From: Zygnema cylindricum
Taxonomy: Eukaryota > Streptophyta > Zygnematophyceae > Zygnematales > Zygnemataceae
Direction of reading: 5' to 3'
NCBI GenBank assembly: GCA_037447655.1
Contig: JBBHKE010003129.1
Coordinates: forward strand, 1 to 25,759
Length of the DNA stretch: 25,759 nt
In this document: one piece after another, positions 2,260 to 23,360 of the stretch
Numbering within the stretch: the stretch's first letter is position 1
How the letters are laid out: the number at the start of each line of letters is the position of its first letter
Program-made: the position numbers and the translations under genes
Notes under the pieces: model-generated
The model's input: only the letters and a program-made list of their open reading frames with translations
Told to the model about the DNA's origin: nothing
Databases searched by the model: none

Positions 2260-2267
2260 TTTAAAAC

Positions 2268-2834: not shown

Positions 2835-2842
2835 TTAAAAAC

Positions 2843-3105: not shown

Positions 3106-3113
3106 GAATATAT

Positions 3114-3409: not shown

Positions 3410-3559
3410 GAATATATTATTTATACACTAATATAAGCGTCTCAAAAGTTTTTTTACTGTGTGTTCCCATTTGTTAGGGCACTTTCTTATGTGCTAAAAT
3501 TACAGTTATTTTTTTTTCGTTTTCCTCCATAACTTGGAAAAAAAAAAGAAAATATGTAT

Positions 3560-6160: not shown

Positions 6161-7240
6161 TTCTGAAAAGGGGGAAGAGGTGTATTGCGAAGTCGATTTG
6201 GGAACACGGAATCGGGGTCCCGAAATTTCTTGAGAAGGGACACATGAAAGACATCATGTATTTTCCATTCAGGGGGAATGTCGAGCTTATAAGCAACTGC
6301 ATTGACATTATAGTGAATGGTCTCGTAAATCTCGGTGCCAACTTTGTAGAGAGTGCATGTGGAAGAGAGAGGTTTGCCATATTCAGCCGTACTTTGTCCA
6401 CAACACAAAAGTTAATATCTTGTCTATGAGTGTTGGCTTAAGATTTATGATGACATTTCACATGTTGCAAGGATGTCGCTGTTTTATCCAAATTGATACG
6501 CATCCTTTCCGCGAAGTCCACTCCGACAAGTGTGCTACAATCGGATGCAATCAGATTTTGGGGAAGGGTAGGCTGTCGTCCGTTGAGAGAGAAGGGCATC
6601 GCATTAGTGAAAGAATGAACTCCACTATTGTACTCAACTTCAATTGTCGTAAGACATATCACCCAATTTGTCTGGTGTACCAACACGTACGCGCGCAGAG
6701 CTTCCTCTAATGTCATGTTTACTCTCTCCGTTTGTCCATCAGTTTGAGGGTGATAGTCGATGGACTTAGCCAATTGTGTCCTGCAGATAGCAAACATATT
6801 CCTCCAGAAGTGGCTAATGAATTTTCGATTGCGGTCACTGACAATCTTCTTAGGAAGTCCGTGGTGCCTCAATATCTCTCGGAAGAAGAGATCCGCGACA
6901 TCTCGAGCCGTGGCCGTGGTTTTTGTGGGGAGGAAATAAGCCATCTTCGTAAGATAGTCGATGACAATAAAAATGGAGTCCTAGCCATCTGGCTTTATAG
7001 GAGGAGCGATGATAAAATCCATCGAGATTGCTTCCCAAGGATCGGATGGTGTATGGAGAGGTTGCAAAAGTCCTTGATGACCACGATCCGTTTTATTCTT
7101 GTTGCAAGAGTCACACGTTCGGACACTCCGCAATATCTTTTGTCATATTTGGCCAATAATACGCTTCGGCAACTCGTGTAGTAGTTTTGTCTCGCCCGAA
7201 GTGGCCGTTCAGGGGTTTGTTATGGCTTAATTGTATGATA
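6139..7240 (-). pseudogene. integrase of the chromovirus, frameshifted
   Basis: Reading on the minus strand, an HHCC zinc region (HNKPLNGH, then CDSC after a frameshift) lies at about 7225-7090. The catalytic core follows. Its first Asp is in ISMDFI (7017-7019), its second in SDRN (6834-6836), and its Glu in TDGQTERVN (6726-6728). There are 35 residues between the second Asp and the Glu, the usual D,D35E spacing. An in-frame TAG at 6981-6983 sits where a Trp is expected, and a TAA lies at 6438-6440. The C-terminal part (NLSLPHALSTKLAPRF, then after a frameshift near 6312 WKIHDVFHVSLLKKF) is the conserved region before the chromodomain. It inserted element DNA into the host genome and is now inactive. 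Confidence 0.88.
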
Positions 7241-7446
7241 GTATGTCGTAACTCTTGATTTGTTGGAATATACTATCAGGTTGTCTGACTTGATTTGTAC
7301 CGCCACATGCCGTTGGCAGTTTCAACCGATATCTTTCTTTTGACGAGTTCTGCAATTGTGTCAAAGTCTGAATATGCCATCTTAATTCTGTTTAGCCACT
7401 TTTTGTCCACTTGCACCGTACTCGTGAGAGTGTTGACATTTTGGTC

Positions 7447-7893
7447 CTAAAATTTGTCGGCTATAATAGTATCCGCTTTTATATATTCCTCCTTGTGTTC
7501 TTGCGATAGCTGCGATAGATCCGTTGCGGTTAGCGCAGTTACACCTGGTCTCTTTGACAACGCATCGGCAGGATTCGTTTTACCAGGTTTGTATTCAATG
7601 GTTAATTTCGGTCCAGAATTTTGTAGGAATGTCATCCATCTACCATGTTTCTTGGATAACTTCAACTGAGTTTGCAGATACTGTAATGCATGGTGGTCAA
7701 TAATCACAGTGATCCGTTTCCCTTCAACGTAACACTTCCAAACTTTTAACGCATTAATGATGGCTATCGTTTCCTTCTCGTGAATGGCCCCATTAAGTTC
7801 TACCGCCTTAAGTTTACGACTATCGTAGGCGATGGGTTGTAGGCCTTTCCCGTGATCTTGCATAAAGTCGCTCCAATAGCCGTATCACTGGCG
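7447..7893 (-). pseudogene. RNase H domain of the chromovirus
   Basis: The minus-strand frame holds [12 protein letters not shown] near 7880, GLQPIAYDSRKL, the conserved E of HEKETIAI, VIIDHHALQYL, and EYKPGKTNPADALSKRPG. These are the successive Asp/Glu/Asp/Asp landmarks of Ty3/gypsy RNase H. The domain removes the RNA strand of RNA-DNA hybrids during reverse transcription. The join to RT needs frame changes around 7860-7905. One looks like a missing base just before the Met at 7863. Confidence 0.85.
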
Positions 7894-8418
7894 TTAGTGA
7901 TTATTGTCCAAGGTAACTCCAAATTGGGAAACCGCTAACACTGGGGCGGTAACCCAGCGCTCCTTTAGCGTGTTAAAGGTTGCCTTGTGTATTGTCTTCC
8001 ACTCATAAGGCACGTCATTTTTGAGCAAATGCGTGAGTGGTGTGGCAATTTTTGCAAATCCCTCCACGAACCTTCGATAGTAGAAGCATAATCCAAGGAA
8101 GCTCCTCATTTCTGTGAGATTTTTTGGTTGCGGCCACTCTTTGAGTGCCTTAGTTTTGTTGGGGTCCATAGCGATTCCATTTCGACAGACCACGTGGCCC
8201 AAAAATGCCATTTGTTCCTTTAAAAATTCACATTTACTCATTTTGGCGTACAACTTATTCTCCCCTAGGATCTCTAACACGGTTCTTAGGTGCTTAACAT
8301 GGTCCTCTAGTGTTTCAGTGTACACTAAGATGTCGTCGTAGAAGACTATTACGAATGCGTCCAAATATTGCCGGAAGATAGAATTCATTAAATGCATAAA
8401 GGTAGCAGGGGCATTAGT
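7894..8418 (-). pseudogene. reverse transcriptase, C-terminal half only (chromovirus)
   Basis: The fragment starts at [20 protein letters not shown] and contains [12 protein letters not shown] with the catalytic YDD at 8332-8340, [16 protein letters not shown], and [18 protein letters not shown] (thumb region). Everything upstream (gag, protease and the RT fingers) is missing. At 8418/8419 the sequence switches to copia leader and gag DNA in the same orientation, so a Met codon from copia now happens to open the frame. This looks like a deletion junction, not a working fusion. Confidence 0.88.
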
Positions 8419-8506
8419 CTGCAATTCTTCTATGTCCTCCATTGGACTACAAAATTCAAAAAGCCTCTAGATAGTTTTTAACTAACCCACTTCAAGCCAC
8501 AACCAG
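8419..8506 (-). other. leader and first gag codons of a truncated copia element
   Basis: On the minus strand this reads TGGTTGTGGCTTGAAGTGGG (possible primer-binding site region), then CTATCTAGAGGC, then ATGGAGGACA with a Met-Glu-Asp start at 8440-8442. The matching sequence lies on the plus strand at 23298-23384 with few differences. Only about eight gag codons remain before the chromovirus RT begins. Confidence 0.8.
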
Positions 8507-8864
8507 TGTTTCCAAAAAAGGCAAACTGACTGTGTGACTACACCTCTGTGCAGACTAGACTCCTCTGAGTCTGAAAAAAAAAGAATCACTGAAAACGGCC
8601 AACCAGCCGATAAGTTATGAGCTGGCAAAAATGCCAATTTTATACAAAGTTCTCTGAGAGAGAGGTGTTTATGTACCAAATTTCCTAAGTCATAAACCCC
8701 TCTCACAACTCCTATTTACTGAAGTACGAACCAATCACACTACTGTAAAGTGCAGAAAGGTATTAGGGCCCATGTACATTCTGTACGGCCTATGTACGAC
8801 AAGGCCACTAAGTGGACGCGTGTCACCATTCCACTCGTGCGTATGCTCCCCGAAATTCCTGTCA
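8507..8864 (-). repeat. copia LTR, remnant copy M
   Basis: The minus strand begins TGACAGGAATTTC (8864) and ends GGAAACA (8507), with a TATA box TATAAAA at 8638-8644. It aligns along its length with the plus-strand LTR at 22918-23296, sharing for example GACACGCGTCCAC, GATTGGTTCGTAC, CTCAGAGGAGTC and GGCTTGAAGTGGGTTAG just beyond. By eye identity is roughly three quarters. The last five bases at the outer end (8860-8864, TGTCA on the plus strand) are also the first bases matching the gypsy LTR next door, so the exact border is ambiguous by 5 bp. Confidence 0.75.
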
Positions 8865-8949
8865 TGCTGTATCTCGTCGGATATTTTAGGTGTTTATATT
8901 TGGGTGTTGGGACGGGCAACCGCTACACTAATTTGTAGTTGGATATTAT

Positions 8950-9530
8950 TTGGGTTTCGCAGGACTGTACGACGTGTATCGTACGACCTATATTTTCTGT
9001 GATTTCCGGGATGGCGATTTGGATCGTACCCGCGGTCCTACCGTACGACGTATATTTTCCGCGATTTCCGCCGACGGCGGATTTGATTATTTCGCGTCGT
9101 TTGTACGACTTACGTCGACCGGAATTCCCGCGGCCACAAATTAGACCGTACTTGTGGTCCTGCCTTGCCTTATTTATTTCTCAGGATTTCTCACCGACAA
9201 CTGCAGTACTTATTTATGTTTTTCCGGATTTCTCGCCGACGACACCTTTTCGAATTGCATCGAGACAAACAAACTTAGCGTACTATATATATTTTGCGCG
9301 ATTCTCGCCGACGGTAGCTTTGATCATTTCACATCGACCGTACGACTCATATTTTCCAGAATTCGCGCGACGACAAAGTGGACCGTATCTGCGATCCTGC
9401 CGTACAAGCTTTCATTTCCTTGAATCCCGGCCGACATCAAATTTTAATCATTTCGCGTGGAGTAGCATCTCGACCGTCGACACAAAGTATGCGATTTTTG
9501 TAATATCACATCGGAACCGTCGACGCAAGT
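8950..9530 (+). repeat. CpG-dense degenerate repeat block in U3
   Basis: Short motifs recur at irregular spacing: CCGTACGAC, GACCGTAC with a following GCGGTCCT, TATTTTCC with GCGATTTC, and CGCCGACG. The same block is present in the second LTR at about 18811-19380, with some CpG sites changed to TpG or CpA between copies. Such repeats in U3 often bind activators. Here they are also dense palindromic CpG sites (CGTACG, GTCGAC, CGCG). Confidence 0.65.
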
Positions 9531-10516
9531 GACAGACAAATCGACTGTCAGTTCTGACGAAGCGAAGTCATTGGACTATTTTAAGTCGTGAACCATTTGG
9601 AGGTTCACGCATTCACATGTAGATAGGAAGGGTTTTAATCCGTAGGTTATAGATTTTGTAACGTAGGGCATAGGATTTCGGCTTCCTATTGGCTGAATCC
9701 AAACTAGACGCAAATATTGACATAGCACGCTGTACTCTGATTAGCTTGTTTTCGCTAGGCGTAGTTTTTGTTACTTAGTTCATTTCTTATCATTTCCTGC
9801 ACACAATTTTCAAGTGAAGGAATTATTCATTTGATTTATTTTCAGTATTGAGGATTCTCTGCAGCCATCTTTTTATTTGTAAAATTGTCCGGACAGCTTA
9901 GAGGCGATTTTCTGCCTTTGCGTGAAGCGTCTAGTTTTCTATTACATTATCAATATCTTGTAAAGCCTTACAAATTAATCTATACGGCTTCGGCCAAGAC
10001 CTACACGATTTCCCTTCACTTTTCTCATCCTTTTGAGTGGATTTCGACCGCGATCTCACAACACAAACTTCTTTTCCCGACTGTGGCTGAACTTTAATTA
10101 GTGTGGAAGTTGCATGTTGGGATTATTGTTGTGTTGTTTTTATTTATTGTGATTGTGTATTTATTTGTATTTGGCTTTTGCGCATCTTTTGAGTTTGGTT
10201 ATCTCAAACCTCATAAGTGTCGGGCATATTGCCATTTTCGGTTTTTATTTATCTTTCTCGGTTGTTTATGCTTTGATTTATTCTATTTAAGTATAAATTC
10301 AGATTATCCTTGATAAGATAACTCCTGCAAGGAATATAAATAGACCGTGGGGCCTAGTGGTCATCCATCGGCTTAGTATTCCTGCACTTGAAAATTGTCT
10401 TATTTTCTTTTCTCGCTTGTTTGTTTTTCTTTCAATTTCGGTTTTCTTTTTATTCAGAGAAAAAAAAAAACAAAAATATCAAAAATATATATTATAGATA
10501 CATTTCTACAAATATC

Positions 10517-10880
10517 TATAATTAGCTTTACATTTATAATTACCATTTGCTTGTTAGTTGACGTCTTATCTTATTGGCCAATTTTCGGCCAACGATATAC
10601 TACACTAACTTAAGTATTTGGCTTTTGTTTTCCCCATTTTCTTTGTTATATGTCTTGAGCATCGTTTGCTCACATTGAGACATACTTCAATGAGGAGTTA
10701 TAATTAGCTTTACATTTATAATTACCATTTGTTTGTTAGTTGACGTCTTATCTTATTGGCCAATTTTCGGCCAACGATATACTACACTAACTTAAGTATT
10801 TGGTTTTTGTTTTCCCCATTTTCTTTGTTATATGTCTTGAGCATCGTTTGCTCACATTGAGACATACTTCACTAAGGAGT
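10517..10880 (+). repeat. 182-bp tandem duplication around the presumed LTR promoter
   Basis: TATAATTAGCTTTACATTTA recurs at 10517 and 10699, and the two units remain nearly identical through ACATACTTCA at their ends. The other LTR has one copy of this segment (about 20535-20715). The unit contains the AT-rich box and TTGGCCAATTTTCGGCCAA, a hairpin. Confidence 0.85.
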
Positions 10881-11476
10881 GGAGTTAGTGGAGCGGATCC
10901 GTTCTTGGGAGCTCTGCAAAACTTTGGTTGTAGCGAACAACCGCAGTTCACCCTTGGCAATCACCAGATTGCTAAGGGTGTTATGTAAGTATCACGATGC
11001 CTTGCGGGTACAGGCGCGTGTTAAGGTAGTCGGTTGATCGTATAGAGGGATCGTGTTTGGAGTGGATTAGTGTTAATCCACTTGTATTGAGCACTGCATT
11101 TGTCCAGCTTTTCTTGCTTGCTATCTGGCCCTGAGTGGCCTTGGCTGAGTTTGCTTTGCCCGGAGTGGGATTTCTTTCATAGATCTTGCCGTTGAAGGCA
11201 TTGGTTAGCACTTTTAGGGATTGTGCCGCTTTAGATCTGCACTTGGGAGTGCTTGGATAGTAAGTTATTTGCCTTTATAGATCTGGCCCTTCTGCCTTGT
11301 CCCCTTGTTTGCAGAGTAGAAGGTTTTGGTAATACGGCTTCCTGATAGATCTGGCCATCGAGGCCCTATTAAAGATTGATTGGTTGATTAGACAAAAGAG
11401 TGGTGTGGCCTGGCATTTGAAGCATATCGGATAGATCGGTTTTGTTACCTGGTCATCATTTGGTGTTATCATTTTT
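10881..11476 (+). promoter_or_regulatory. structured 5' leader before gag
   Basis: This untranslated leader is conserved in copy 2 (20716-21314). Two adjacent hairpins stand out. GGTTGT/ACAACC (about 10926-10942) lies inside an outer CTGC/GCAG pairing. CACCCTTGGCAATC pairs with GATTGCTAAGGGTG (10949-10980, 14 bp with one G-U pair, 4-nt loop). A splice-donor-like GTAAGTAT follows at 10985-10992. The LTR end and primer-binding site must lie in or near this stretch, but I could not match a tRNA confidently. The hairpins could serve packaging or dimerisation; that is inference. Confidence 0.55.
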
Positions 11477-12837
11477 ATGCCCACCGATTGGGATAATCTT
11501 TATAATCCTGTCGAAACCACTCGATCGTCGGCCCCGTTTAGGCCCACGGAATCCGGACCATCAGATTTATCTAGTCTTTTGGACCATCCTTCCCTAAATA
11601 TCTCGGGTCAAATTTCCCCTTCGGTTCGATCCACTCTCACCTCAGTATCTTCTTTATCATCAGTCTCTTCCACATTTTTCGAAGAGGAATCTGACCACGA
11701 TTCCGTTGACGGGTCGGATTCCGATTCATTATCTTTTTGGTTTCCGCAAATTACCAATCCAGTTTTATCCCCAAGCATTTCATTATTGGAAATGGCTTCC
11801 ACATCGGAGGGAGGGGGGCGCCTTCATTTCTGTTTTTCAAGAATGAAGGACACCATGACTTTATCGCATTTTCGAATGCTATTCGATACCGAAATGCGTG
11901 ATCTTGCATTTCGCTACCAAGATCAGTTTGATCTACGGGTCGCTTTCTCTCTTTTAGGCCGTTACCTTCGAGGTTCAACCCTTACTCTTTATTCTAGGAA
12001 GTATGATTCCGTACTTGCGATGACAGAGTTTTCTCCGTCTTTCGCTGGGAGTACTGCTATTATAGGACAACCATAAATTCCATACCAACCGGCTATCCCG
12101 GAAGTCCTCGATCTCAACGGCGATGTTATTACAGGAGCAGTTGCGGAAATACTGCAACAGTTTGCTATAGCCGCACGTGCTAGAATTCCAGCACGACCAG
12201 CAATGACGATCCCTATACTGGATCCCCTCTCTGTCATGTTTGAAAAGTTGCAAGCAGAATACCGTATGCAAAACCCTGACCAAGTTCGCGAGTTAATGAA
12301 CTTCGAACGGAAGTCAGGAGAGACTGCCCTTGCCATGCGTGCTCGCATGGAAGCTCTTCGTGAAGCATTGCCAGACTTAATGTCGGATGCTGAAGCTGTC
12401 CAAAAATTTGTAGGACAGTTTCCGAGTCAGTCTAAGAAATTCATCCAGAGTCACTTGACTCAAACGTATGGCTTGAAGTTCACTTTCGACCAAGCCGCCC
12501 AGCATGCCGTGGAATACGAAATGCAAAATTGTTGGTGGGAAGCCCATGACCGACCTAAAGCGGTCCCGAAAGAACCGATTGTTCCACCATGGAACAATCC
12601 TCGTCCTAACAACCGGCCTCTTAAAGTCCCGGCCATGGGAACCCCACCTTTTGCTCCCGGAAATCGATTATGTTTTCGATGTGGGAAGACCGAGCATGAT
12701 GCCCGAATGTGTCCAGACAAAAAATTGCTACCTGTACACATTGCAAGCAAACCGGACATTATCTCTATCGTTGTCATATAAAAAACCCGCAATATTCCTA
12801 TCAGAACCAAATTATGAGTGGTGGCATTCCAGCTTGA
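11477..12837 (+). pseudogene. gag of the gypsy-methyltransferase element (capsid, two zinc knuckles), broken
   Basis: The frame opens at ATG 11477 (MPTDWDNLYNP) and runs to 12781, with one stop at 12074-12076. The N-terminal ~100 residues are rich in Ser, Asp and Glu and of unknown role. A capsid-like helical region follows (about 12230-12530, including FVGQFPSQSKKFIQSHLTQ). The first CCHC knuckle, CFRCGKTEHDARMC, is at 12671-12712. A second, CTHCKQTGHYLYRC, sits at 12733-12774 but one frame away, in the frame of the downstream protease, so a single-base indel lies between them at an A6 run. A TGA at 12835-12837 then interrupts. Gag forms the particle and its knuckles bind element RNA. The 5' part is matched by copy 2. 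Confidence 0.88.
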
Positions 12838-14160
12838 TCCGCAAGACCGGTTCAACCGGTTAAAGCACCGGAAAAAGACACCACTCCACCTAAGGTATCT
12901 CAAAGAGAGAGAGAGCCTTTAGAAATGCAAGAGCAAATGGCGGCTATGATGAAAGAACAATTCGCAGCTTTCATGACTCAAATGAAGCCACAATTTACAG
13001 GCATGGCTCGCACTGTTGTACACATGCCCACGTTGGCAGGTCGAATCTTACGAGATTCCACCATCCAACAACGAGAGGCTACGTTCGACAAAGGTTCGAC
13101 CGATCACAGTCGTGACAGTAAAACACCTAACACGCGTATTCCTTTGTCATTCACTAAAGAACCTTCTCCTCTCTTGCCCGAAACCGCTTCAGCCATCGCG
13201 GCTGAAGCTCTCAACATAGTGGATCGAACTATACATGAGGCACACCGCGTGAAAGAACGCTTGTGCATTCTATCCGCTATGATTTCCGACTCACCGAAAA
13301 TCTCCCCTATCTCCTTACCCCTCGATAGCTCAGCTGCAGCTGCCGCGTTACAAGCACTTCAGCTGCACACAAATCTTGCTGCTATTCAGCCTATTTCCAT
13401 AGAGGAGCGAAAGTCTCGTGATCCTCATATCAATTTTTTGGATAATGCGAAGGGTGCATTGTTGATCAATGGTATAGCCCCTTCCCTGCCTCTCATGGAT
13501 ACGGGTGCAAAGCCAGTGATATTAGGCTCTAGCTTTAAACTGAAGCTTGGTCTAACTCCGGACAAGCTTCAGTCCACTTCTACTCGCTTGTTAACATCAG
13601 CGGGTACAACCGAACCTGTCCTAGGAATCACTAAGGAACCGCTTGTTTTCAGGTTCCAGAACGAAACGGCCACAGACTTTGCTGAAATCTCGATTCACGC
13701 TCTAGTCACTAAATGTAGTGACTATGAATGCCTAGTGGGACGGGACGTTATATTTCGTGTAGGGGGTGGTGTTGACATGCATAATCAGACATTTTCTTAT
13801 AGGCCCACTAGCTTCCCGGAACGCAAAATCTTCATTCCGCTAATTTCTGCTAGGAAGCCCATGCCTATTATGGCAAATTCGGCCACCTCCATACCTGCAT
13901 TTTCAGGGAATTCAGTGGGGGGCGAAATATTTCATTCATTGTCAGCAGAAGAAATTTTGCCCGATAGTTCTTACCTACCAGAAATTTTCAGTGACCCAAG
14001 TTTTCTTATAGATACGAGGGAATTTGACCGGATCTATAACCAAACCTTGTCAATTGCACTTTCTCCGGTCTCTTCCCCAATCCCAGTCCCTACAAACTCT
14101 TCTGGGTTTCTTCCCATTGATTGGAATCCGGTCCAATTCAAACCTCATCCAAATGGATTA
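12838..14160 (+). pseudogene. aspartic protease region of pol, with linker
   Basis: The frame is open from 12838 through the start of the methyltransferase. The catalytic motif LMDTGA has its Asp at 13498-13500. Further on come LLTSAGTTEPVLGI (flap region) and CLVGRDVIF (about 13730-13750), matching the ILGRD-like motif of retroviral-type proteases. Upstream, Met/Gln-rich sequence (MQEQMAAMMKEQFAAF) continues the gag tail. The roughly 130 residues between protease and methyltransferase (about 13770-14150) have no recognised motif. The protease would release gag, RT, integrase and the methyltransferase from the polyprotein. Confidence 0.8.
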
Positions 14161-15140
14161 CTGATTTTGGACCTTTTTGCTGGAATAGGCACTACTCTAC
14201 TGGCATGTTTGCGGAATGGATTATTAATCCGATTTTATTATTCCGTGGAGATTGATCCGTTAGCACGGAAAGCACAATTACATCATTGTAATCGTTGCGT
14301 TCCAAATACCCGCATTTGTTCCCAAAATCTGCATACAAGCATATGCATACTGCCCTCCCACAAGACATCCGGATTGTGGGCAACCATCACTTACTGGAGA
14401 TTGGTCCAATCGATCTAGTTTTTGGCGGATGGGAGTGCCAAGGAATGTCTCAAGCCGGGAAAGGTCTCGGATTAGCCGATCCCCGCACCAAATTATTTTT
14501 TGAGTTGGTTCGCATACTACATTTTCTACAAACTTTAGATCATCCTATGGGGTATATCTTGGAGAATGTCGCGGCCTATAATGATCCAAGACCTACAGTT
14601 TTGGCTAATTATCAACGAATCGAACAATTAATTGGCCCGCCTCTTATTATTGACGCGGCTCGCCATGGTTCACTAGCACACCGGGTTCGCTCCAAATGGA
14701 CGAACCTGATCCATATTGGTAGACTCCGGGAGGCTTACTTGTTAGTTCGTCCTCCTCCTACAGACATTTAGGCTGTCCTTCTTCCTTTTCATAAGGTAAA
14801 GCCTTGCATTCAAAAGGACTGTCCCCCTAATTTCAGTGTCAATGTCCCGGGTCAACCTCTCAAGGTGCATCCTACCTTAGTTTCTTACCCACATTCACAT
14901 GCATTCTCTAATGACGGTCCTGGCATGCTCCGAAACATTCATACCGGTGAGCTCGAAAAGCTTACCTTTACGGAACGAGAACACCTAATGCATTGCATTC
15001 CCTGCACTACTGTCGCTCCTAGTCTTACTGGCCGTCAAAGATGCACTTTATTGGGTCGTCTCATGGACCCTCAGTCTTTGTCTTTTGTTTTAGGTCTTGG
15101 GTTTGCAGCTGGTCGCCACTCTCAGGCACATCCGTCTTAA
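14161..15140 (+). pseudogene. C5 cytosine DNA methyltransferase domain captured in pol (DNMT3-like features)
   Basis: Motifs appear in linear order I to X. Motif I is LDLFAGIGT (14167-14193, binds S-adenosylmethionine). Motif II is VEID (14245-14256). Motif IV is GGWECQGMSQAG, with the catalytic Cys codon at 14436-14438. Motif VI is LENV (14559-14570), and an AHRVRSKW block near 14674-14697 fits motif VIII. RQRCTLLGRLMD (about 15035-15067) resembles the LLGRS motif X of animal DNMT3. LFFELVRIL after motif IV is also DNMT3-like, and the linear order argues against permuted DRM. One frameshift near 14297, a TAG at 14769-14771 and a second shift just before 15140 break it. The two shifts compensate, so it was probably in frame with protease and RT as one polyprotein. 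The usual Pro before the catalytic Cys is Glu, and the motif X Asn of many family members is Arg. It would methylate cytosine in DNA; the target site is unknown. Confidence 0.9.
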
Positions 15141-15146
15141 CCAGCT

Positions 15147-15158
15147 GGAGGGGGGGAA
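15147..15158 (+). promoter_or_regulatory. internal polypurine tract (candidate central PPT)
   Basis: A 12-base purine run preceded by CCAGCT lies between methyltransferase and RT. It resembles the true 3' polypurine tract at 18511-18529, which is also AGCT followed by G-rich sequence. In the polyprotein frame it encodes LEGGN. It could prime plus-strand DNA internally, as the central tract of lentiviruses does, or could simply be coding sequence. Confidence 0.4.
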
Positions 15159-16930
15159 TGCATCACTAAGAAAATCTTTCCGTACCACTCTCCAAGGGAC
15201 CATATTTCAATTTTTCCTCTTTTCTTCTCTTATTCTACTAGTTCCGAAAATCTCTATCTACGATTTCCTCAATCCTAGCCATATGTCCTGGTCTATTCCC
15301 GCATACACGGCTGTCCAGTCTACAAGTCCCATGCATATTCCCCCCACTCCTCATTGGAGTGCTGCTTTTCCAACTCGCAGTTGGAATCATTCGATTAATT
15401 TCTTTAAACAAACACCTGTAGCTTACGAGTTAGGTCAAACGCTTATCGCAGATGAGCAGTTGGCCTTTGCACAAGCCATGGAAGCTATGACAACCGAAAA
15501 TCCCGATGCTCCTAAATGGAAATTTGGCACCAATCTAACAAAGGCCGAACAAGAGTTACTGAATGACGTAGTTTTACGAAATATCGATGCCTTTGCCTTT
15601 TCTATGAATGATTTGGGTCGTCACACCGCTTATAAAATGTCGATAGATCTCGAAGATGATCGCCCTATATTTAAACCGAAACATCGTTTGTCAGAAACTG
15701 AATGGGAAATGGTAGACAAGCGATGTGCTGAACTAGAGGAAGCTGGCCTAATCTATCAATCAGACTCCACATTTGCAGCTCCCACAGTCATGCCTCGGAA
15801 AAAGGATTCCGAGGGTAATTTTACTGAACGTCGAATGTGTGGTGACTATCGTGAACTAAATGCTAGAACAGTTCAAGATCGTCATCCCATGCCTCTTGCC
15901 GAAGAAATATTTGATCATGTAGGCGGAGCAAATTATTTTAGTATCCTTGACCTCCGTGAAGGATTCAATCAAATCGAGATAGAGGAAAAAGACCGGCATA
16001 AAACTGCCTTTTGGGGTAGCGACGGCTGATGGGAATGGGCCGTAATGCCATTCGGACTGAAAAATGCTCCGGCAGTATTTCAAAAAGTCATGGATTCCGT
16101 TCTTGGAGGCTGTAAGTTTGCTAGATGTTACATCGATGACCTTATCATTGCCTCGGCTATTATCGAAGAGCACGCTGCTCACATCGAATGGGTATTGACT
16201 GAATTGAAAAAGGTCGGATTAAAATGTCATACATCGAAATGCACCTTTGGAGCCGAGGGAGTGCCTTACCTCGGCCATTTTATCTCGGCTGAGGGGATCA
16301 CTCCTCTCGAAGCAAAGGTAGAGGAAATCAGTAAATTGCCTGCTCCCACGGACCACACCAGTTTGCGAGCCTTTCTCGGACTTGCTATTTATTATCGCAG
16401 ATTTGTATCTAATTTTAGTACCATCGCATCTCCGTTAAACGACCTTATCAAGAATGAAGTGGCGTTTATATGGGGTCCCGATCAGATTTCCGCATTTCAA
16501 AGATTAAAAATCGCCTTATCGAGTGCTCCAATTCTCCGTCCTCCCAATCACAAACTTCCTTTTTGTCTCCAAACAGATTTTGGAAAACGCGGAATCGTTG
16601 TCATCTTGACACAAAGAGAGTTGAGCGGGGAGGAATACGTAGTTGCTTACGCGAGTAGAAGCAATAACCGGGCTGAATCAAATTATAGTAGCTACGAAGG
16701 AGTGTCTAGCCGCGGTTTGGGGAGTCGTTCACTTCCGCCATTATTTGTACGGAAAACCTTTCACACTCTTAACTGACCATCAGCCCTTACATTGGCTGAT
16801 GACGAACGATAAGCTTTCCGGGAAGTTAGCCCGATGGGCTTTAATCTTACAAGAATATGACGTTGAAATAATTAACCGACCAGGTCAGCTTAGTCTAAAC
16901 GGAGGCGGAATTTCCGGAAATCCTTTGCCC
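15159..16930 (+). pseudogene. reverse transcriptase and RNase H of the gypsy-methyltransferase element
   Basis: After a low-similarity N-terminal stretch, RT begins near 15640 (KPKHRLSETEWEMV) and contains MCGDYRELNA, SILDLREGFNQI (Asp at 15949-15951), VMPFGLKNAPAVFQKVMDS and YIDDLIIAS (Asp-Asp at 16135-16140). GHFISAEGITP and LRAFLGLAIYYRRFV follow. A TGA at 16027-16029 precedes WEWAVMPFG. RNase H follows, with TDFG (Asp at 16576-16578), SSYEG, a frameshift near 16700, then LLTDHQPLHWL (Asp at 16775-16777). The last landmark, usually an NADALSR-like block, reads SLNGGGISGN, so its Asp is lost. RT copies element RNA into DNA and RNase H removes the RNA. Confidence 0.92.
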
Positions 16931-18293
16931 CGAACAACAGATAACGGAGTTCGACAAGATTTCGATGACGACGATGTTCCCGTCATGTCAATGGGTTCTT
17001 ATCTTACTTACTGCCTAGCGTCTATTCCGAACCCCCGTCTCGCCACAGATCCTTGGCGTGATGGGCCTCTCATTCTTTTCCTATCCTCCCAGACCTTCAG
17101 GTCCGGCACCACTTCTGATAAAGAAGATAGAGTGAAAAAGAGGGCCAAAGGTTACCTTTGGCTCGGGGGATCTTTAGTTCGGTTGTTGGCAGACGGAAGC
17201 CATAGGCACGTTCCACGGCCTACCGAGCGTCTTTCTCTCATTGAGCAGATTCACACCGAGCTTGGTCACTACGGTACCAAGCGAACGTTAAGTCTAGTCC
17301 AGGCACGGTATTGGTGGTCAGGAATGCAAGCTGATGTCGTTGCTATTCTGCACAAGTGTGCCACCTGTGACCGTCTTTTTCCAACCGGCAGACTACGCTT
17401 CAACCCCTACCTATCAGGGGTTTGTTCTATCGATGGTCGGTTGATTTGGCCGGACCTTTTCCTATCTCACGTAGGGGGAAACAATACATCATGATTATGA
17501 TTGAAAATTTCAGTAAGTGGGTAGAAGTTGTAGCTCTGCCTCACAAGACAGCTAAGTTAACCACCGCAGCTTTTAAGGAACATGTCCTTATGAGATACGG
17601 TGCCCCAGCCGAGGTCCTTACGGATCAAGGTACAGAATTTCGGGGAGAATTTCAAGAGATGCTTGATGAGGCTCTCATCGATCATCGTCGTACTAGCCGG
17701 GATCACCCCCAGGCCGATGGCCTGGCTGAACGGGCAGTCCAGACATTTAAGCGTGCCTTGCGTAAGCATTGCTTAGAGAAACACATTTCGGTTAACGACG
17801 AGTTCTTGGTTATATTACCATGGGATATCGCATATCGGTTCAGGCTAGTCTGGCTAATTTCAGCCCGTATTATGTTTTATTTTGGCGACAACCGTTGCTC
17901 GGTCGCAATATTCAGAAGGCCGCAAGCTTCCCACTTCCGCTGATGTTTGACACAATATTTTTGGAAGAACTCACTCGTCGTGCTTTGCTTTTTGCCCGTG
18001 AAATGCCCATGGCTTTTGATAACCAGCAGATTGCCCAGCATCGGGACACACTTCGGTTTGCCACCACTCGCAGCGGCAGTTACAGACCGCAACAGAAGCC
18101 CTATCGGGTGGAAGATTATGTTTGTCTTCGCAAGCAATCTTTAGACACTTTGGACACGGATGTTTTTGCACACATCCTACGGATTATCGAGGTGGATCCG
18201 AACGGGATGTTAGGATTACAAGGAGCGGACACATGGACTTTTCGAGAGCACTCCAAGAATTGTGCTCCATGTTACTTACCAGATTTGTCGTAG
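16931..18293 (+). pseudogene. integrase of the gypsy-methyltransferase element
   Basis: The zinc-binding region has His at 17252 and 17267 (HTELGH) and Cys at 17357 and 17366 (CATC). The core has WSVDLAGPFP (Asp 17443-17445), LTDQGTEF (Asp 17623-17625) and HPQADGLAERAVQTFK (Glu 17728-17730), with 34 residues between the last two. Frameshifts lie near 17415 and 17820. The C-terminal part (MGYRISVQASLANFSPYYVL, then YRVEDYVCLRK) ends in FREHSKNCAPCYLPDLS before a TAG at 18291-18293. It inserts the element DNA and continues in the same frame into the PHD finger. I see no chromodomain. Confidence 0.9.
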
Positions 18294-18506
18294 GATATGG
18301 ATCCTATGCGGATGCCGATTACGGAGGCGACGGCATGTACCTTTTGTCATCGATCGGACAGGGAAACTACCATGTTACTTTGTGATAATTGCAGTCAGGG
18401 GTTTCACATGGAGTGTTTGGTGCCACCATTGTCGGCAGTTCTTGATGGTTAATGGTTTTGCCACGGATGTCGCGAACTACCGGTCGTGTTGGCCAGCTCC
18501 TCGGCA
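18294..18506 (+). pseudogene. PHD zinc finger at the integrase C-terminus
   Basis: In the integrase frame, directly after the stop at 18291, a C4-H-C3 pattern appears. Cys are at 18336, 18345, 18381 and 18390, His at 18405, and Cys at 18414, 18459 and 18468. Spacing is C-x2-C-x11-C-x2-C-x4-H-x2-C-x14-C-x2-C, typical of PHD fingers. Supporting signature text is LLCDNCSQGFHMECL and WFCHGC. A TAA at 18450-18452 interrupts just before the conserved Trp. The frame ends in TAA near 18507, immediately before the polypurine tract. PHD fingers usually read histone H3 tails, so this could steer integration the way a chromodomain does in chromoviruses; that role is inferred. Similar PHD tails occur, to my recollection, in some algal gypsy elements. 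Confidence 0.88.
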
Positions 18507-18510
18507 GGCT

Positions 18511-18529
18511 AAAGAGCTGGGGGGGGGGA
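18511..18529 (+). promoter_or_regulatory. 3' polypurine tract
   Basis: AAAGAGCT is followed by ten G and an A. It lies right after the end of the pol frame, as expected for the primer of plus-strand synthesis. Normally the LTR starts at or just after such a tract, which implies the LTR begins near 18530-18590. Confidence 0.75.
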
Positions 18530-18720
18530 TAAACCGACCTAACCATAACCAGCTAAGTCGTTGACCTTTATTTTTCTTCCACCTAGCCTGTTGTTGAATT
18601 TATCCATTTTTACTTTTATGTTTTATTTCATTTACAATATCTCGCTATCATTTGAGTTAAAGTTGAGCACACCTAATGATATTACATGCATCTTCATGTT
18701 ATTTGACACATGCACGAAAC
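18530..18720 (+). other. start of the 3' LTR, absent from the truncated 5' LTR
   Basis: No coding signal. Because it follows the polypurine tract, it should be the first ~190 bp of the LTR. A TGTTGTTGAATT candidate start lies at 18589. The 5' LTR lacks this stretch and begins instead at 8860 next to copia DNA. A 3' untranslated region is the alternative. Confidence 0.45.
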
Positions 18721-19571
18721 TGTCATGCCGCATCTTGTCGACCATTTTAGTTGTTTATATTTAGGTGTTAGGACAGACAGCCGCTACACTAATTTGTATT
18801 TGGGTGTTATTTGGGTTTCGTAGGACTGTACGACGTGTACCGTACAACCTACATTTTCCGTAATTTCCGGGAAGACGATATGGACCGTACCCGCGGTTCT
18901 ACCGTACGACGTATATTTTCTGCGATTTCCGCCGACGGTGGATTTAATTATTTCGCGTCGACCGTACGACTTACATTGACCGGGATTCCCGCGGCCACAA
19001 TTTGGACCGTATTTGCGGTCCTGCCGTACCTGTTTTTATTTCCCCGATTTTCGGCCGACGACTCATATTCGAATTCACGTCGGTGCAAATAATCTTTCCG
19101 TACCGCATCTATCGCCCGCGATTTTCACCAACGGCTACTTTGGTGATTTCAAGTAAACCGTACGACTTACCTTTTTCGGAATTTCCGCGACTACAAGTTG
19201 GACTGTACCCGCAATCCTACAGTTCCTAGTGTCGTTTTCCGAAATCCCGGCCGACGACAAATTTGAATCATTTCGCGTGAGGGAGCATCTCGACCGTCGA
19301 CGCAACGTATACAATTTTCGTGATATCTCATCTGGACCGTTGATGCGAGTGACAAACAAATCGGCTGACGGTTCTGACGAAGCTACGCGATTGGAATATT
19401 ATAAGTCGTGGACCATTTGGAGGTTCACGCGTTCACATGTAGATAGGAAAGGATTTAATCCGTAGGTTATAGATTATGTAACGTAGGGCATACGATTTCG
19501 GCCTCCTATTGGCCGAATCCGAACTAGACGCAAATACTTACATAGCACGCTGTACTCTGATTGGCCTGTTT

Positions 19572-19928
19572 TCACTAGGCATAGTTTTGGTTACTTAGTT
19601 CATTTCGGATCATTTCCTGCACACAATTTTCAAGTGCACGAATTATTCATTTTTATTTATTTTCAGTATTGAGGATTTTCTGCAACCATCTTTTTATTTG
19701 TAAAATTGTCCGGACAGCTTAGAGGCAATTTTCTGCCTTTGCGTGAAGCTCACTAGGCGTAGTTTTGGTTACTTAGTTCATTTCGGATCATTTCCTGCAC
19801 ACAATTTTCAAGTGCACGAATTATTCATTTTTATTTATTTTGAGTATTGAGGGTTTTTCTGCAGCCATCTTCTTATTTGTAAAATTGTCCTAACAGCTTA
19901 TAGGCAATTTTCTGCCTTTGCGTGAAGC
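19572..19928 (+). repeat. 178-bp tandem duplication private to the second LTR
   Basis: TCACTAGGC starts units at 19572 and 19750, and both end in TTTGCGTGAAGC. Units differ at few positions. The first LTR has a single copy (about 9754-9929). Confidence 0.85.
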
Positions 19929-20664
19929 GTCTAGTTTTCTATTACATTATCAATATATTGTAAAGCCTTACATATTAATCTCTACGGCTTCGGCCAAGAC
20001 CTACACGGTTTCCCTTCACTTTTCTCGTCCTTTTGAGTGGATTTCGACCGCGATCTCACAACACAAACTTCTTTCCCCGGCTGTGGCTAAATTTTAATAA
20101 GTGTGGAAGTTGCATGTTGGGATTATTGATTTGTTGTTTTATTTCTTCAGATTGTGTATTTATTTCTATTTGGCTTATGCGCATCTTTTGAGTTTGGCTA
20201 TCTCAAACTTCATAAGTGTCGGGCATATTGTCATTTTCAGTTTTTATTTATCTTTCTCGGTTGTTTATGTTTTGATTCATTTTATTTGAGTATAAATTCA
20301 GATTATTCTCGATAAAGATAACTCCTGCAAGGAATATAAATAGACCGTGGGGCCTAGTGGTTATCGATCGGCTTAGTATTCCTGCACTTGAAAATTGTCG
20401 TATTTTCTTTTCTTGCTTGTTTGTTTTTATTTCAATTTCGGTTTTATTTTTATCTAAAGAAAAAAAAACCAAAAATATTTCAAAAAAATCAAAAAAAATA
20501 TATATATATTTATAGACACATTTCTACAAAAATATATAACTAGCTTTACATATATAATCACCATTTGCGTGTTAGTTGACGTTTTATCTTATTGGCCAAT
20601 TTTCGGCCAACGATATGCTACACTAACTTATGTGTTTGGTTTTTGTTTTCCCCATTTTCTTTGT

Positions 20665-20674
20665 TATATATAAG
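20665..20674 (+). promoter_or_regulatory. TATA box of the LTR promoter
   Basis: TATATATAAG lies in the AT-rich end of U3 in the second LTR. Transcription would start roughly 30 bp downstream, around CTCACATTGAGACATAC. In the first LTR both copies of this site have decayed to TTATATGTCTTG. Confidence 0.5.
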
Positions 20675-20715
20675 GGGCATCATTTGCTCACATTGAGACA
20701 TACTTCACTAAGGAG

Positions 20716-21314
20716 TGGAGTTAGTGGAGCGGATCCGTTCTTGGGAGCTCTGCAAAACTTCGGTTGTAGCGAACAACCGCGGTTCACCCTTGGCAATCAC
20801 CAGATTGCCAAGAGTGTTATGTAAGTATCACGATGCCTTGCGGGTACAGGCGCGTGCTAAGGTAGTCGGTTGATTGTATAGAGGGATCGTGTTTGGAGTG
20901 GATTAGTGTTAATCCACTTGTATTGAGCATTGCATTTGTCCAGCTTTTCCTTGCTTGCTATCTGGCCCTGAGTGGCTTTGGTTGAGTTTGCTTTGCCCAG
21001 AGTGGGATTTCTTCCATAAATCTTGCCGTTGGAGGCATTGGTTAGCTCTTTTGTGGATTGTGCCGCTTTAGATCTGCATTTGGGAGTGCTTGGATAGTAA
21101 GTTATTTGCCTTTATAGATCGGGCCCTTTGGTCTTGTCCCCTTGTTTGCAAGGTAGAAGGTTTTGGTAATACGACTTCCTGAAAGATCTGGCCATCGAGG
21201 CTCTGTTAGAGATTGATTGGCTGATTGGACAAGAGAGTGGTGTGGCCTGGAATTTGAAGCATATCGGATAGATCTGTTTTGTTATCTGGTCATCATTTGG
21301 TGTTATCATTTTTT
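20716..21314 (+). promoter_or_regulatory. leader of the second, partial copy
   Basis: It is collinear with 10881-11476 and retains the 14-bp hairpin (20785-20816, one C-A mismatch where copy 1 pairs) and the GTAAGTAT donor-like site (20821-20828). Confidence 0.65.
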
Positions 21315-22334
21315 ATGCCCACCGATTGGGATAATCTTGATTATCCTGTCGGCACCACTCGATCGTTGGCCTCGTTTAGGCCCACGGAATCCGGACCATC
21401 AGATTTATCTAGTCTTTTGGACCATCTTTTCCTAAATATCTCAGGTCAAATTTCCCCTTCGGTCCGATCTTCCCTCACCTCGGTATCTTCCTTATCATCA
21501 ATGTCTTCCACATTTTTCGAAGAGGAATCTGACCACGATTCCCTTGACGGGTCGGATTCCAATTCATTATCTTTTTGGTTTCCACAAATTACAAATTCAT
21601 TATTATCCCCAAGCATTCCATTATTGCAAATGGCTTCCACATCCAAGAGGGGGTGTCGCCTTCATTTCTGTTTTTCAGGAATGAAAGACACCATGACTTC
21701 ATCGCATTTTTGAATGCTATTCGATACCGAAATGCGTGATCTTGCATTTCGGTACCAAGATCGGTTAGACCTACGGGTCGCTTTGTCTGTTTTAGGAAGC
21801 TTTCTCAAGGTTAGTCTAACTCTATATTCACAAGTATATTCAGATTGTGATGAGTTTTCCTGGAGTCCACCATAGGACAACCAGAATTCTACCAACCGGC
21901 CCATCCTGTCCTTGACCAAGGACATATGTATCACCGGGCTTGTGGGAAATATCATCAGCTTATTAGTTGCGCGCATCGAATAAGCGACCACTTACCGATG
22001 CATCCGGTGATAATCGCGATCCGTCCATGTCGAAATGTTGGAAGCGGAATACCATATGCAAAACCCTGACCAAGTTCGTGAGTTAATGAACTTCGAACAG
22101 AAGTCAAGAGAGACAGCCCCTGCCATGCGTGCTCGTATGGAAGCTCTTCGTGAAGCATTGCCGGACTTAATGTCGGATGCTGAAGTTGTCCATAAATTTG
22201 TAGGACAGTTTCCGAGTCAGTCTAAGAAATTTATCCAAAGTCACTTGACTCAAAAGTACAGCTTGAAGTTCACTTTCGACCAAGCTGCCCAGCATGCAGT
22301 GGAATATGAAATGCAAAATTGTTGGTGGGAAGCC
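21315..22334 (+). pseudogene. gag of the second copy, truncated
   Basis: The ATG at 21315 opens a frame homologous to copy 1 gag (MPTDWDNLDYPVGTTRS). It stops at 21711-21713, where copy 1 has CGA (Arg) and this copy has TGA, a CpG C-to-T change. The stretch 21760-22030 is strongly diverged and out of frame. Homology recovers at 22035-22334 (the QNPDQVRELMNFEQKS block and the capsid C-terminal part). It ends abruptly at 22334 after NCWWEA; copy 1 continues there into the zinc knuckles. Confidence 0.85.
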
Positions 22335-22917: not shown

Positions 22918-23296
22918 TGACATTCGGTCGCGGGAATTTCGAGGAACGTACGGACGAGTGGAAAATGGACACGCGTCCACCTAATGGCCTTGTCGTATAG
23001 AGGCCATACAGAAATTTCATCGGCAGTAGTACTTTCTGGTATTGTACAGTGTTTTGATTGGTTCGTACAGGCAGTATAGAGGGGTTATGAGAGAGAGCTA
23101 GGAAAAACTAGGACTTAGGAAAAATCAGGTAAATAGTCCTCTCTCTCTTTGAGAGTTTGTATAAATTGGCATCTTTGCCACCCTATAACTTATCGCTTGG
23201 TTGGGCGTTTTCAGAGATTTATTTTTCTACGGACTCAGAGGAGTCCACGCTGCATAGGGGTGCAGTGAAACTGTCATTTTTCCTTCATGGACAGCA
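22918..23296 (+). repeat. 5' LTR of the plus-strand copia element
   Basis: It starts TGACATTCGG and ends GACAGCA (TG...CA ends), 379 bp. It aligns with the inverted remnant at 8507-8864. A TATA box TATAAAT lies at 23160-23166, about 130 bp before the LTR end. The start is inferred from where similarity with the remnant begins. Confidence 0.65.
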
Positions 23297-23360
23297 GTGG
23301 TTGTGGCTTGAAGTGGGTTAGTTAAATACTATCTAGAGGCTTCCTCTATTTTGTGGTTCA
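23297..23360 (+). promoter_or_regulatory. leader and possible primer-binding site of copia
   Basis: One base after the LTR end comes TGGTTGTGGCTTGAAG. It starts with the TGG expected opposite a tRNA CCA end and is nearly identical in the remnant copy. I cannot assign the tRNA. Confidence 0.4.

What the first reader, a model, noticed from the sequence alone, without database searches (positions are those of the whole stretch)
14161..15140. A gypsy retrotransposon encodes a cytosine DNA methyltransferase between protease and RT
Motifs I, II, IV, VI, VIII and X of a C5 methyltransferase lie in order in the pol polyprotein, flanked in the same original frame by LMDTGA protease and YIDD reverse transcriptase. 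Methyltransferase capture by retroelements has been reported from memory for a charophyte and for dinoflagellates, but it is rare. The features here (linear I-X order, LFFELVRIL, LLGR in motif X) point to a DNMT3-like source, not DNMT1 or DRM. A retroelement carrying its own DNA-modifying enzyme may silence itself to persist, modify host chromatin, or protect its cDNA.
Basis: partly seen in the sequence, partly recalled or inferred. Interest (0 to 1): 0.88.

Follow-up and report, generated by a model that had tools for sequence, protein, structure and literature searches.

The report
Algal retrotransposon carrying a DNA methyltransferase
A jumping gene in a green-lineage genome carries its own DNA-methylating enzyme and a histone-reading zinc finger, and many related copies keep both parts, so the element seems equipped both to mark DNA chemically and to sense chromatin.

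Summary
Confirmed and extended. The window holds a decayed Ty3/Gypsy element with a DNMT3-like C5 methyltransferase (MT) between protease and reverse transcriptase (RT): PF00145 E 2.9e-11; DNMT3A is the best solved relative. It is no one-off: the host genome (353 Mb, a streptophyte by marker genes) gave MT matches at 138 places, a lower bound. RT follows MT in 28 of the 30 best-scoring ones, window included. One copy is a single 2,394-aa frame; contig L081 shows the same order.

New here: a PHD finger ends the integrase. A related branch has the MT between RNaseH and integrase, one change of order on the MT tree. The Pro before the catalytic Cys is Glu in most members. The terminal purine tract (AGCT-Gn type) recurs just after the MT in 12 of 12 long copies. 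Stop-free MT copies: median dN/dS 0.26 in 40 usable of 136 pairs.

Closest published case: KnitGypsy-Dnmt3 of Klebsormidium (PMC5890265). Activity and target are untested; no CpG depletion is seen. New variant of a known kind.

The parts
8860..12544 (+). Upstream member of a direct repeat (LTR part, leader, start of gag). Its left edge abuts a copia-derived piece, so the first ~190 bases of the LTR may be missing (inferred).
   Evidence: Matches 18720-22334 at 81-90%; K2P 0.129 over 2337 columns of the part before gag
11435..12781 (+). gag, frame 2, broken by TAA 12074-12076; CCHC zinc knuckle near 12668-12715
   Evidence: zf-CCHC E 0.0028, below cut-off; matches gag of P0002
13465..13671 (+). 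Aspartic protease (LMDTGA), frame 1
   Evidence: PF13650 E 0.0018, below cut-off; lies within 13375-14295 aligned with L081
14161..14295 (+). Methyltransferase motifs I-II, frame 1
   Evidence: Piece 14128-14310: 55% to P0002, 41% to P0006, 31% to P0005 and P0003
14292..15137 (+). Methyltransferase motifs IV-X, frame 3, one TAG at 14769-14771; motif IV GGWECQ
   Evidence: PF00145 2.9e-11; six homologous polyproteins E 3.3e-61 to 6.8e-22; alignment A2
15143..15158 (+). Internal purine tract AGCTGGAGGGGGGGAA directly after the MT, like the terminal polypurine tract (candidate central PPT)
   Evidence: same place in 12 of 12 ten-kb copies
15469..16701 (+). Reverse transcriptase (YIDD), frame 1, TGA at 16027-16029
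   Evidence: PF00078 1.8e-18 for the second piece, 5.1e-6 (below cut-off) for the first; 50% to L081
16700..17377 (+). RNase H and N-terminal zinc part of integrase, frame 2
   Evidence: PF17917, PF17921
17374..18290 (+). Integrase core (frame 1) and C-terminal part (frame 3)
   Evidence: PF00665 1.5e-13; 54% to L081
18294..18509 (+). PHD finger at the end of the integrase, same frame as the integrase C-terminus; TAG 18291-18293 before it, TAA 18450-18452 inside
   Evidence: PF00628 2.2e-10 for 18294-18449; reading; also in L081, P0003, P0004, P0006, P0007
18515..18529 (+). Terminal polypurine tract AGCTGGGGGGGGGGA
   Evidence: 10 of 12 ten-kb copies have one
18720..22334 (+). Downstream member of the direct repeat: LTR, leader and truncated gag (tandem arrangement)

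Best explanation
Shown: this is a dead copy of a multicopy Ty3/Gypsy family whose polyprotein carries a DNMT3-like C5 methyltransferase after the protease and a PHD finger at the end of the integrase. Inferred: the protease frees the methyltransferase into the replication particle with RT and integrase. There it methylates cytosines de novo in the element's own cDNA or at the fresh insertion, while the PHD finger reads an unmodified (H3K4me0-type) histone H3 tail. The integrase is thereby steered to transcriptionally inactive chromatin, as a chromodomain steers a chromovirus integrase. The element would thus arrive already marked as silent DNA at a site where it does little harm. A second copy of the polypurine tract just after the methyltransferase gene probably primes plus-strand synthesis from the middle of the element.
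For: MT identity and DNMT3 affinity. In a tree with 20 phage and bacterial rows the eight retro-MTs are one clade (100/99) with DNMT3A next (95/89). With three more copies of the window's family, two of a second own-genome family and five outgroup rows the values are 97/97 and a weaker 82/78. Family-wide presence. Constraint on MT: dN/dS median 0.263, maximum 0.495, in 40 usable of 136 pairs from 17 stop-free copies; RT median 0.278, maximum 0.684, in 22 of 45 pairs from 10 copies. Window against L081: main MT piece 40% identical, the piece with protease, linker and MT start 27%. P0003 against P0004: MT 71%, integrase core 76%, the linker between them 49%. PHD by Pfam in window, L081, L191, P0003, P0004, P0006, P0007. 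Closest solved PHDs are UHRF1 (P0003) and Lid/KDM5A (window); that these read unmodified H3 is recalled. Internal tract: pattern [AG]GCN[AG]*G6+ after the MT in 12 of 12, at the 3' end in 10 of 12, elsewhere in those copies 0. The host has DNMT1-RFD domains, so a 5mC system is likely present (inferred). Published kin: SymbioDIRS-Dnmt3 domains methylate CpG de novo in yeast (PMC5890265).
Against: No CpG depletion in this element (o/e 0.93 in gag-PHD, 0.81 in the MT segment, 1.1-1.2 in the repeats; L081 0.82), while the copia piece in the same window is depleted (0.43). So there is no clear scar of CpG self-methylation; non-CG methylation is not excluded. The recurrent Pro to Glu change before the catalytic Cys could lower or alter activity. 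The KnitGypsy-Dnmt3 domain gave no methylation in yeast, which its authors call inconclusive (PMC5890265). dN/dS was measured only on copies chosen for lacking stops; 91 of 136 pairs were saturated or undefined; in the 4 pairs usable for both domains MT (0.366) was looser than RT (0.228). The PHD of the second family is weak (E 0.0044, below cut-off), and P0005 shows none. Plain runs of eight or more G also occur elsewhere in the long copies (8 hits, mostly between protease and MT). No structure could be predicted.
Confidence: 0.4

Rival explanations
1. The methyltransferase acts in trans on host chromatin or on rival elements, for example by methylating the neighbourhood of insertions or competing transposons, rather than on its own cDNA.
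For: The copia piece next door is CpG-poor (0.43) while this element is not; the family is multicopy, so trans effects are plausible; the host has DNMT1-RFD domains, hence probably a maintenance enzyme.
Against: A single copia fragment is no sample; host enzymes alone could explain it. The MT is embedded in the polyprotein with RT and integrase, which suggests action with the particle.
Confidence: 0.2
2. The domain has become a nucleic-acid-binding or RNA/hybrid-directed protein with altered chemistry; the Glu in motif IV marks a change of substrate or loss of catalysis while folding and binding are kept.
For: ECQ in 6 of the 8 retroelement MTs and Glu in 24 of 30 own copies, against Pro in all 182 matches of my motif-IV pattern in 160 loci, almost all phage or bacterial, from scans that allowed both Pro and Glu. 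The residue changes twice on the MT tree; no CpG scar.
Against: In the 8 aligned MTs the Cys, the EN of motif VI and AHRxR are invariant. P0005, L081 and five checked members of a second family in the same genome keep PCQ. A binding-only protein would not be expected to keep all catalytic residues.
Confidence: 0.25
3. The methyltransferase is a passenger: it entered once by chance and is carried along without benefit.
For: The window copy is broken; many listed copies have stops in the MT.
Against: One clade of MTs across two gene orders, invariant catalytic residues at 31-43% identity to the window, and dN/dS about 0.26 in the usable pairs.
Confidence: 0.05
4. The two gene orders reflect two separate captures of related host DNMT3 genes by related Gypsy elements rather than one capture and a move.
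For: Host algal DNMT3 genes were not in the trees, so the shared clade could include unsampled host genes; the published account infers independent captures in other retroelements (PMC5890265).
Against: Retro-MTs form one clade (100/99 or 97/97). Both orders share an integrase core 51-59% identical to the window, and a PHD finger follows it in four of the five second-order proteins. The order changes once on the MT tree. ECQ occurs in both branches. The integrase and RT trees are too weakly resolved to decide.
Confidence: 0.25

Closest known systems
KnitGypsy-Dnmt3 of Klebsormidium nitens (de Mendoza et al. 2018, PMC5890265; parts 1-4 of 7 and passages read)
   Same: LTR Gypsy element of a streptophyte with a Dnmt3-related domain inside the Pol polyprotein; purifying selection reported there and found here.
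   Different: The main text never mentions a PHD finger (0 occurrences) and calls the domain composition typical of Gypsy with DIRS-like repeats; figures and supplements were not seen. Here a PHD finger ends the integrase, an internal purine tract follows the MT, motif IV is ECQ, and a second gene order exists in kin. Klebsormidium sequences could not be fetched, so kinship of the two families is untested; they may well be one clade.
SymbioDIRS-Dnmt3 (dinoflagellates, PMC5890265)
   Same: Dnmt3-type domain fused in Pol; two domain orders coexist; DNMT domains active on CpG in yeast.
   Different: DIRS elements with tyrosine recombinase; here DDE integrase, aspartic protease and PHD.
SymbioLINE-Dnmt (PMC5890265)
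   Same: Retroelement-borne C5 methyltransferase.
   Different: Separate ORF of a LINE and an orphan DNMT lineage.
DIRS elements with Dam-like adenine methylase (via PMC5890265 and PMC6338049, passages)
   Same: Methylase as accessory domain of a retroelement polyprotein.
   Different: Adenine methylases, said there to be structurally unrelated to cytosine DNMTs.
Chromoviruses (abstracts' beginnings listed; targeting role recalled)
   Same: Chromatin-reader domain at the C-terminus of a Gypsy integrase.
   Different: Reader is a chromodomain there; no chromodomain was found here.
Ginger1 DNA transposons (PMC2836005, passages)
   Same: Gypsy-like integrase with C-terminal accessory domains; one family in its table has a PHD motif.
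   Different: DNA transposon, PHD together with Ulp1; the word stem 'methyl' does not occur in its text.

Membership tests
C5 cytosine DNA methyltransferases (PF00145) | Profile match over cut-off | tested here: met
   Window 43.8 bits against 22; L081 45.9, L191 44.4, L213 48.9; over cut-off in 4 of 6 database proteins, P0006 below it, P0007 no hit
C5 cytosine DNA methyltransferases (PF00145) | Pro-Cys in motif IV | tested here: not met
   Cys kept, Pro is Glu in the window (GGWECQ); PCQ in P0005, L081 and the second family
C5 cytosine DNA methyltransferases (PF00145) | ENV (motif VI) and RxR (motif VIII) | tested here: met
   ENV and AHRVR in the window; E, N, A, H, R, R invariant in 8 MTs (P0006 has ENT)
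C5 cytosine DNA methyltransferases (PF00145) | Methylates cytosine | not testable with these tools
   No assay
DNMT3 type | Catalytic domain closest to DNMT3 rather than DNMT1, DNMT2 or DRM | tested here: met
   trees 95/89 and 82/78; only one, long-branched DNMT3 row used
DNMT3 type | PWWP and ADD domains (animal DNMT3) | tested here: not met
   No such Pfam hit in L081, L191, L213 or the six database proteins. Algal DNMT3s are said to lack companions (PMC12344493, passage)
Ty3/Gypsy LTR retrotransposon | Order PR-RT-RNaseH-integrase with DDE rve domain | tested here: met
   (with MT between PR and RT; the PR matches are below Pfam's cut-off in all of them)
Ty3/Gypsy LTR retrotransposon | LTRs with PPT at the 3' LTR | tested here: inconclusive
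   Direct repeat 8860-12544 / 18720-22334 and tract 18515-18529; LTR ends and primer-binding site not fixed
KnitGypsy-Dnmt3 | Dnmt3 domain inside Gypsy Pol, streptophyte host | tested here: met
   Host markers: chlorophyll a/b-binding domain 88 exon-level matches, plant CesA zinc finger 2, DNMT1-RFD 2; taxonomic range of these markers is recalled
KnitGypsy-Dnmt3 | Same sequence clade as the Klebsormidium copies | not testable with these tools
   No Klebsormidium sequence could be fetched
KnitGypsy-Dnmt3 | DIRS-like repeat layout | tested here: inconclusive
   The window shows a tandem direct repeat; DIRS-like layout not seen, boundaries uncertain
Chromovirus | Chromodomain after the integrase | tested here: not met
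   PHD instead; no chromodomain hit
PHD finger (PF00628) | C4HC3 zinc pattern and profile match | tested here: met
   2.2e-10; zinc pattern found in 10 of 12 ten-kb copies, one of them with a stop inside

The most novel reading that the evidence does not exclude
A clade of Ty3/Gypsy elements, present in a streptophyte and in several unnamed organisms, is a self-contained epigenetic 'writer plus reader'. A DNMT3-like de novo methylase, moved within pol once during its history and repeatedly remodelled at its catalytic loop (Pro to Glu), marks the element's DNA. A PHD finger fused to the integrase delivers it into H3K4-unmethylated chromatin. A duplicated polypurine tract at the methylase boundary starts plus strands next to the methylase gene.
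Probability: 0.3. Interest if true: 0.85.

Novelty: new variant of a known kind. Interest (0 to 1): 0.62.

Why it matters
DNA methylation normally silences transposons, so a transposon that keeps its own methylase under purifying selection turns the usual conflict around. The published case left the role open. Finding an integrase-linked histone reader in the same polyprotein gives that question a testable form: does the element choose silent chromatin and mark itself there? The one-clade, two-order history suggests an old lineage found in several organisms rather than a lineage-specific accident. The natural Pro/Glu variation in motif IV gives matched enzymes for studying the chemistry.

Tried and rejected
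Homolog search with the 159-aa MT piece and with the 526-aa PR-MT piece found nothing, presumably because full polyproteins lie outside the length limits; the region search found six. Scans of viral contigs with MT, RT and integrase-PHD pieces found no relative. L081 stood out there (6e-53; next 2e-9). Of the others I extracted 21 methylase frames (10 viral, 11 bacterial), of which 20 passed my length limits and went into the tree; the rest were not looked at apart from the motif-IV count. One-off insertion: rejected. Bacterial or phage source: disfavoured. DNMT1 or DRM source: disfavoured. CpG self-methylation scar: looked for, not seen. A first check of gene order left 13 minus-strand loci unturned and its counts were discarded; one search replaces it. 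Structure prediction was asked for 13 times and never started. A search of the host for the SRA domain did not complete. Host name: not established. The size of Zygnema cf. cylindricum (359.8 Mb, 3,587 scaffolds; PMC9915684, passages) is compatible with 352.8 Mb in 2,689 contigs, but nothing links them. Paper searches for a PHD finger on a Gypsy integrase and for Dnmt3 in Gypsy: among the rows listed I saw no title or opening of an abstract reporting it beyond those named. Two lists were well capped (20 of 138 papers, 30 of 53), and the library holds open-licence papers only.

Full report
What is in the window. A Ty3/Gypsy element runs on the + strand, from an LTR-leader-gag repeat (8860-12544, repeated at 18720-22334; 81-90% alike, K2P 0.129 over 2337 columns) through gag, protease, methyltransferase (MT), reverse transcriptase, RNase H, integrase and a PHD finger. 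The window copy is old and dead. Its frames run 2-1-3-1-2-1-3 from gag to PHD, with in-frame stops in gag (12074), MT (14769), RT (16027), before PHD (18291) and inside PHD (18450).

The methyltransferase. PF00145 matches at E 2.9e-11. Against solved structures the single piece finds DNMT3A first (8.9e-11). A profile of seven retroelement MTs scores DNMT3A at 6.4e-18, HaeIII 2e-8, HhaI 1.9e-6, DRM2 2.3e-6 and DNMT2 4e-3; one chain named only 'DNA methyltransferase' (4onj, a DRM by recall) scores 3.7e-8; no chain named DNMT1 appears up to 0.1. In a tree with 20 phage and bacterial methylases the eight retro-MTs are one clade (100/99) with DNMT3A next (95/89). With three more copies of the window's family, two of a second family and only five outgroup rows the retro clade is 97/97 and the DNMT3A link 82/78. 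DNMT3A is a long branch and the only DNMT3 row, and host algal DNMT3s are missing, so the exact donor is open.

It is a family. A region search of a 5.8-billion-protein database gave six polyproteins (E 3.3e-61 to 6.8e-22). All six carry retroelement domains. PF00145 is over its cut-off in four of them (P0002-P0005), below it in P0006 (E 0.0047) and not reported in P0007, where the MT is seen by alignment alone. A scan of bacterial genome contigs gave L081, a 9,285-base contig in a MAG labelled Synechococcales with a 127-base terminal overlap. It holds gag-PR-MT in one frame, an in-frame TAG, then RT-RNaseH-integrase-PHD (its protease match, E 0.00078, is below cut-off); I take it as a eukaryotic contaminant. 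The window's own genome (352,776,454 bases, 2,689 contigs) gave 140 matches at 138 places to the window MT, the window included; this is a lower bound because 138 of 1,723 candidates were scored. A PF00145 search gave 123 matches (123 of 782 candidates scored); 29 overlap those places and 94, at 93 places, do not. Of the eight loci fetched from it, five (L203, L204, L205, L208, L210) belong to a second, diverged family with AGWPCQ in motif IV. RT was detected after the MT in three of them (L204, L208, L210), not in L203 or L205; a protease-like frame is read upstream in all five, with DTG in four and DTA in L205. Two of the eight (L206, L207) are of the window's kind and one (L209) is a weak match. 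The other new rows were not checked.

Gene order. Of the 30 best-scoring own places, the window among them, with 1.5-kb flanks, RT follows MT in 28 and protease was detected before it in 22; one has MT followed by integrase and PHD, one shows MT alone. Twelve copies were fetched at ten kb, most chosen for long open frames and four of them already among the 30, so not a random or separate sample: ten show PR-MT-RT-RNaseH-integrase-PHD in order, one lacks only a protease hit, one shows PR and MT alone. One of them is a single frame of 2,394 aa with MT, RT, RNase H, integrase and PHD over Pfam's cut-offs and CCHC (E 0.0086) and protease (E 0.012) below them. The second family, judged from one copy (L213), has MT-RT-RNaseH-integrase in one 1,519-aa frame with a weak PHD match (E 0.0044) and a protease frame (E 2.1e-4, below cut-off) upstream, separated by one in-frame stop. 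In three of the six database proteins (P0003, P0005, P0007) the MT lies instead between RNase H and integrase; P0004 and P0006 begin in MT and continue to integrase and PHD. On the MT tree the two orders separate with support 98/97, one change of order. The integrase and RT trees are weakly resolved: the integrase tree groups window and L081 (88/94) but leaves the other five unresolved (one side in 14% of bootstrap trees); the RT tree groups the three second-order rows (87/88) and window with L081 only at 67/61.

PHD finger. PF00628 E 2.2e-10 in the window piece, 4.3e-10 in L081, 1.5e-9 in L191, and 5.4e-12 to 9.7e-7 in four of the six database proteins. The closest solved PHDs are UHRF1 for P0003 (8.4e-15) and Lid/KDM5A for the window (5e-9). 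That both bind unmodified H3 tails is recalled, not tested. P0004, P0006 and P0007 have a further stretch after PHD, weakly similar in two of three pairs (28-30%) and without a hit in the third.

Motif IV. Six of the eight MTs read ECQ and two (P0005, L081) PCQ. Of 30 own copies 24 show Glu, one Val, five could not be read by my pattern. On the tree the residue changes twice. What Glu does there is unexplained.

Selection. From the fetched copies, seventeen distinct stop-free MTs gave 136 pairs: 5 with dS up to 0.05, 40 with dS 0.05-1.5, 91 saturated or undefined. The 40 have median dN/dS 0.263 and maximum 0.495. Ten stop-free RT pieces gave 45 pairs, 22 usable, median 0.278, maximum 0.684. 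In the four pairs usable for both, MT is 0.366 and RT 0.228. Copies were chosen for lacking stops, which favours low values.

Purine tracts. AGCT followed by a run of G stands at 15143-15158, just after the MT, and at 18515-18529, after PHD. In the 12 ten-kb copies the pattern [AG]GCN[AG]*G6+ is found within 60 bases after the MT in 12, at the 3' end in 10, and nowhere else; a stricter AGC form gives 11, 10 and 0; plain runs of eight or more G give 12, 10 and 8 further hits, mostly in a stretch between protease and MT. A purine-G run lies within 20 bases after the MT in 27 of 30 short copies, the stricter pattern in 22 of 30. I read the internal tract as a candidate central polypurine tract, or as the scar of the capture; neither is shown.

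Host. Chlorophyll a/b-binding matches (88), a plant-type cellulose synthase zinc finger (2) and two DNMT1-RFD matches on one contig point to a streptophyte with its own DNMT1; the taxonomic range of these markers is recalled.

Mechanism. I think it most likely that the MT is released by the protease, acts on the element's cDNA or fresh insertion, and works with a PHD-guided integrase that prefers H3K4-unmethylated chromatin. Shown: the parts, their order, their conservation. Inferred: activity, substrate, targeting. Against a simple CpG self-marking model: CpG o/e is 0.93 in the coding part and above 1 in the repeats (0.82 in L081), while the neighbouring copia piece is at 0.43.

Comparison. 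De Mendoza et al. 2018 (PMC5890265; parts 1-4 of 7 and passages) describe KnitGypsy-Dnmt3 in Klebsormidium, Dnmt3 inside Gypsy Pol, so the kind is known. A later paper refers to retrotransposon-embedded DNMT3s as in Copia and DIRS (PMC12344493, passage), which differs from the first account. The main text of the 2018 paper has no mention of PHD; its figures and supplements were not visible to me. New here, as far as my searches show, are the PHD finger, the second gene order in a Gypsy element, the duplicated tract, the ECQ variation and the breadth. I therefore call it a new variant of a known kind.

Noticed in passing
L081:1-9285: An LTR retroelement of eukaryotic type, with 127-base terminal overlap, sits in a GTDB genome labelled Synechococcales (AVDCRST_MAG81): probable contamination of that MAG.
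   Followed up: partly
L081:3489-3491 and L213:2314-2316: A single in-frame stop separates two halves of the polyprotein (after MT in L081, after protease in L213) with the frame open on both sides: possible readthrough control or recent mutation.
   Followed up: no
window 22933-25759: Copia element with CpG o/e 0.43, against 0.81-1.45 in the other stretches measured in the window.
   Followed up: partly
window 8419-8859 and 6438-8415: Copia LTR/gag-start piece (minus strand) fused to a minus-strand Gypsy pol remnant: nested or chimeric junction.
   Followed up: no
window 2267-3410: Three nested inverted-repeat pairs: a foldback or MITE-like element.
   Followed up: no
window 1064-1468: Tandem repeat, unit about 105 bases, about four copies.
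   Followed up: no
P0004, P0006, P0007 (after the PHD finger): A weakly conserved stretch with no Pfam hit follows the PHD finger; it might be another chromatin-reader fold.
   Followed up: partly
G000 contigs C633, C1042, C412, C1374, C507 (L203, L204, L205, L208, L210): Second MT-bearing Gypsy family with AGWPCQ in motif IV; the copy on C1374 has a 1,520-aa open frame.
   Followed up: partly
L071: A viral-contig methylase that branches nearest to the DNMT3A plus retroelement group (100/97, 99/96).
   Followed up: no
L191, L192, L196, L197, L198, L201, about 1.4 kb before the MT end: A further G-run between protease and MT in some copies, in a Gly-rich coding stretch.
   Followed up: no
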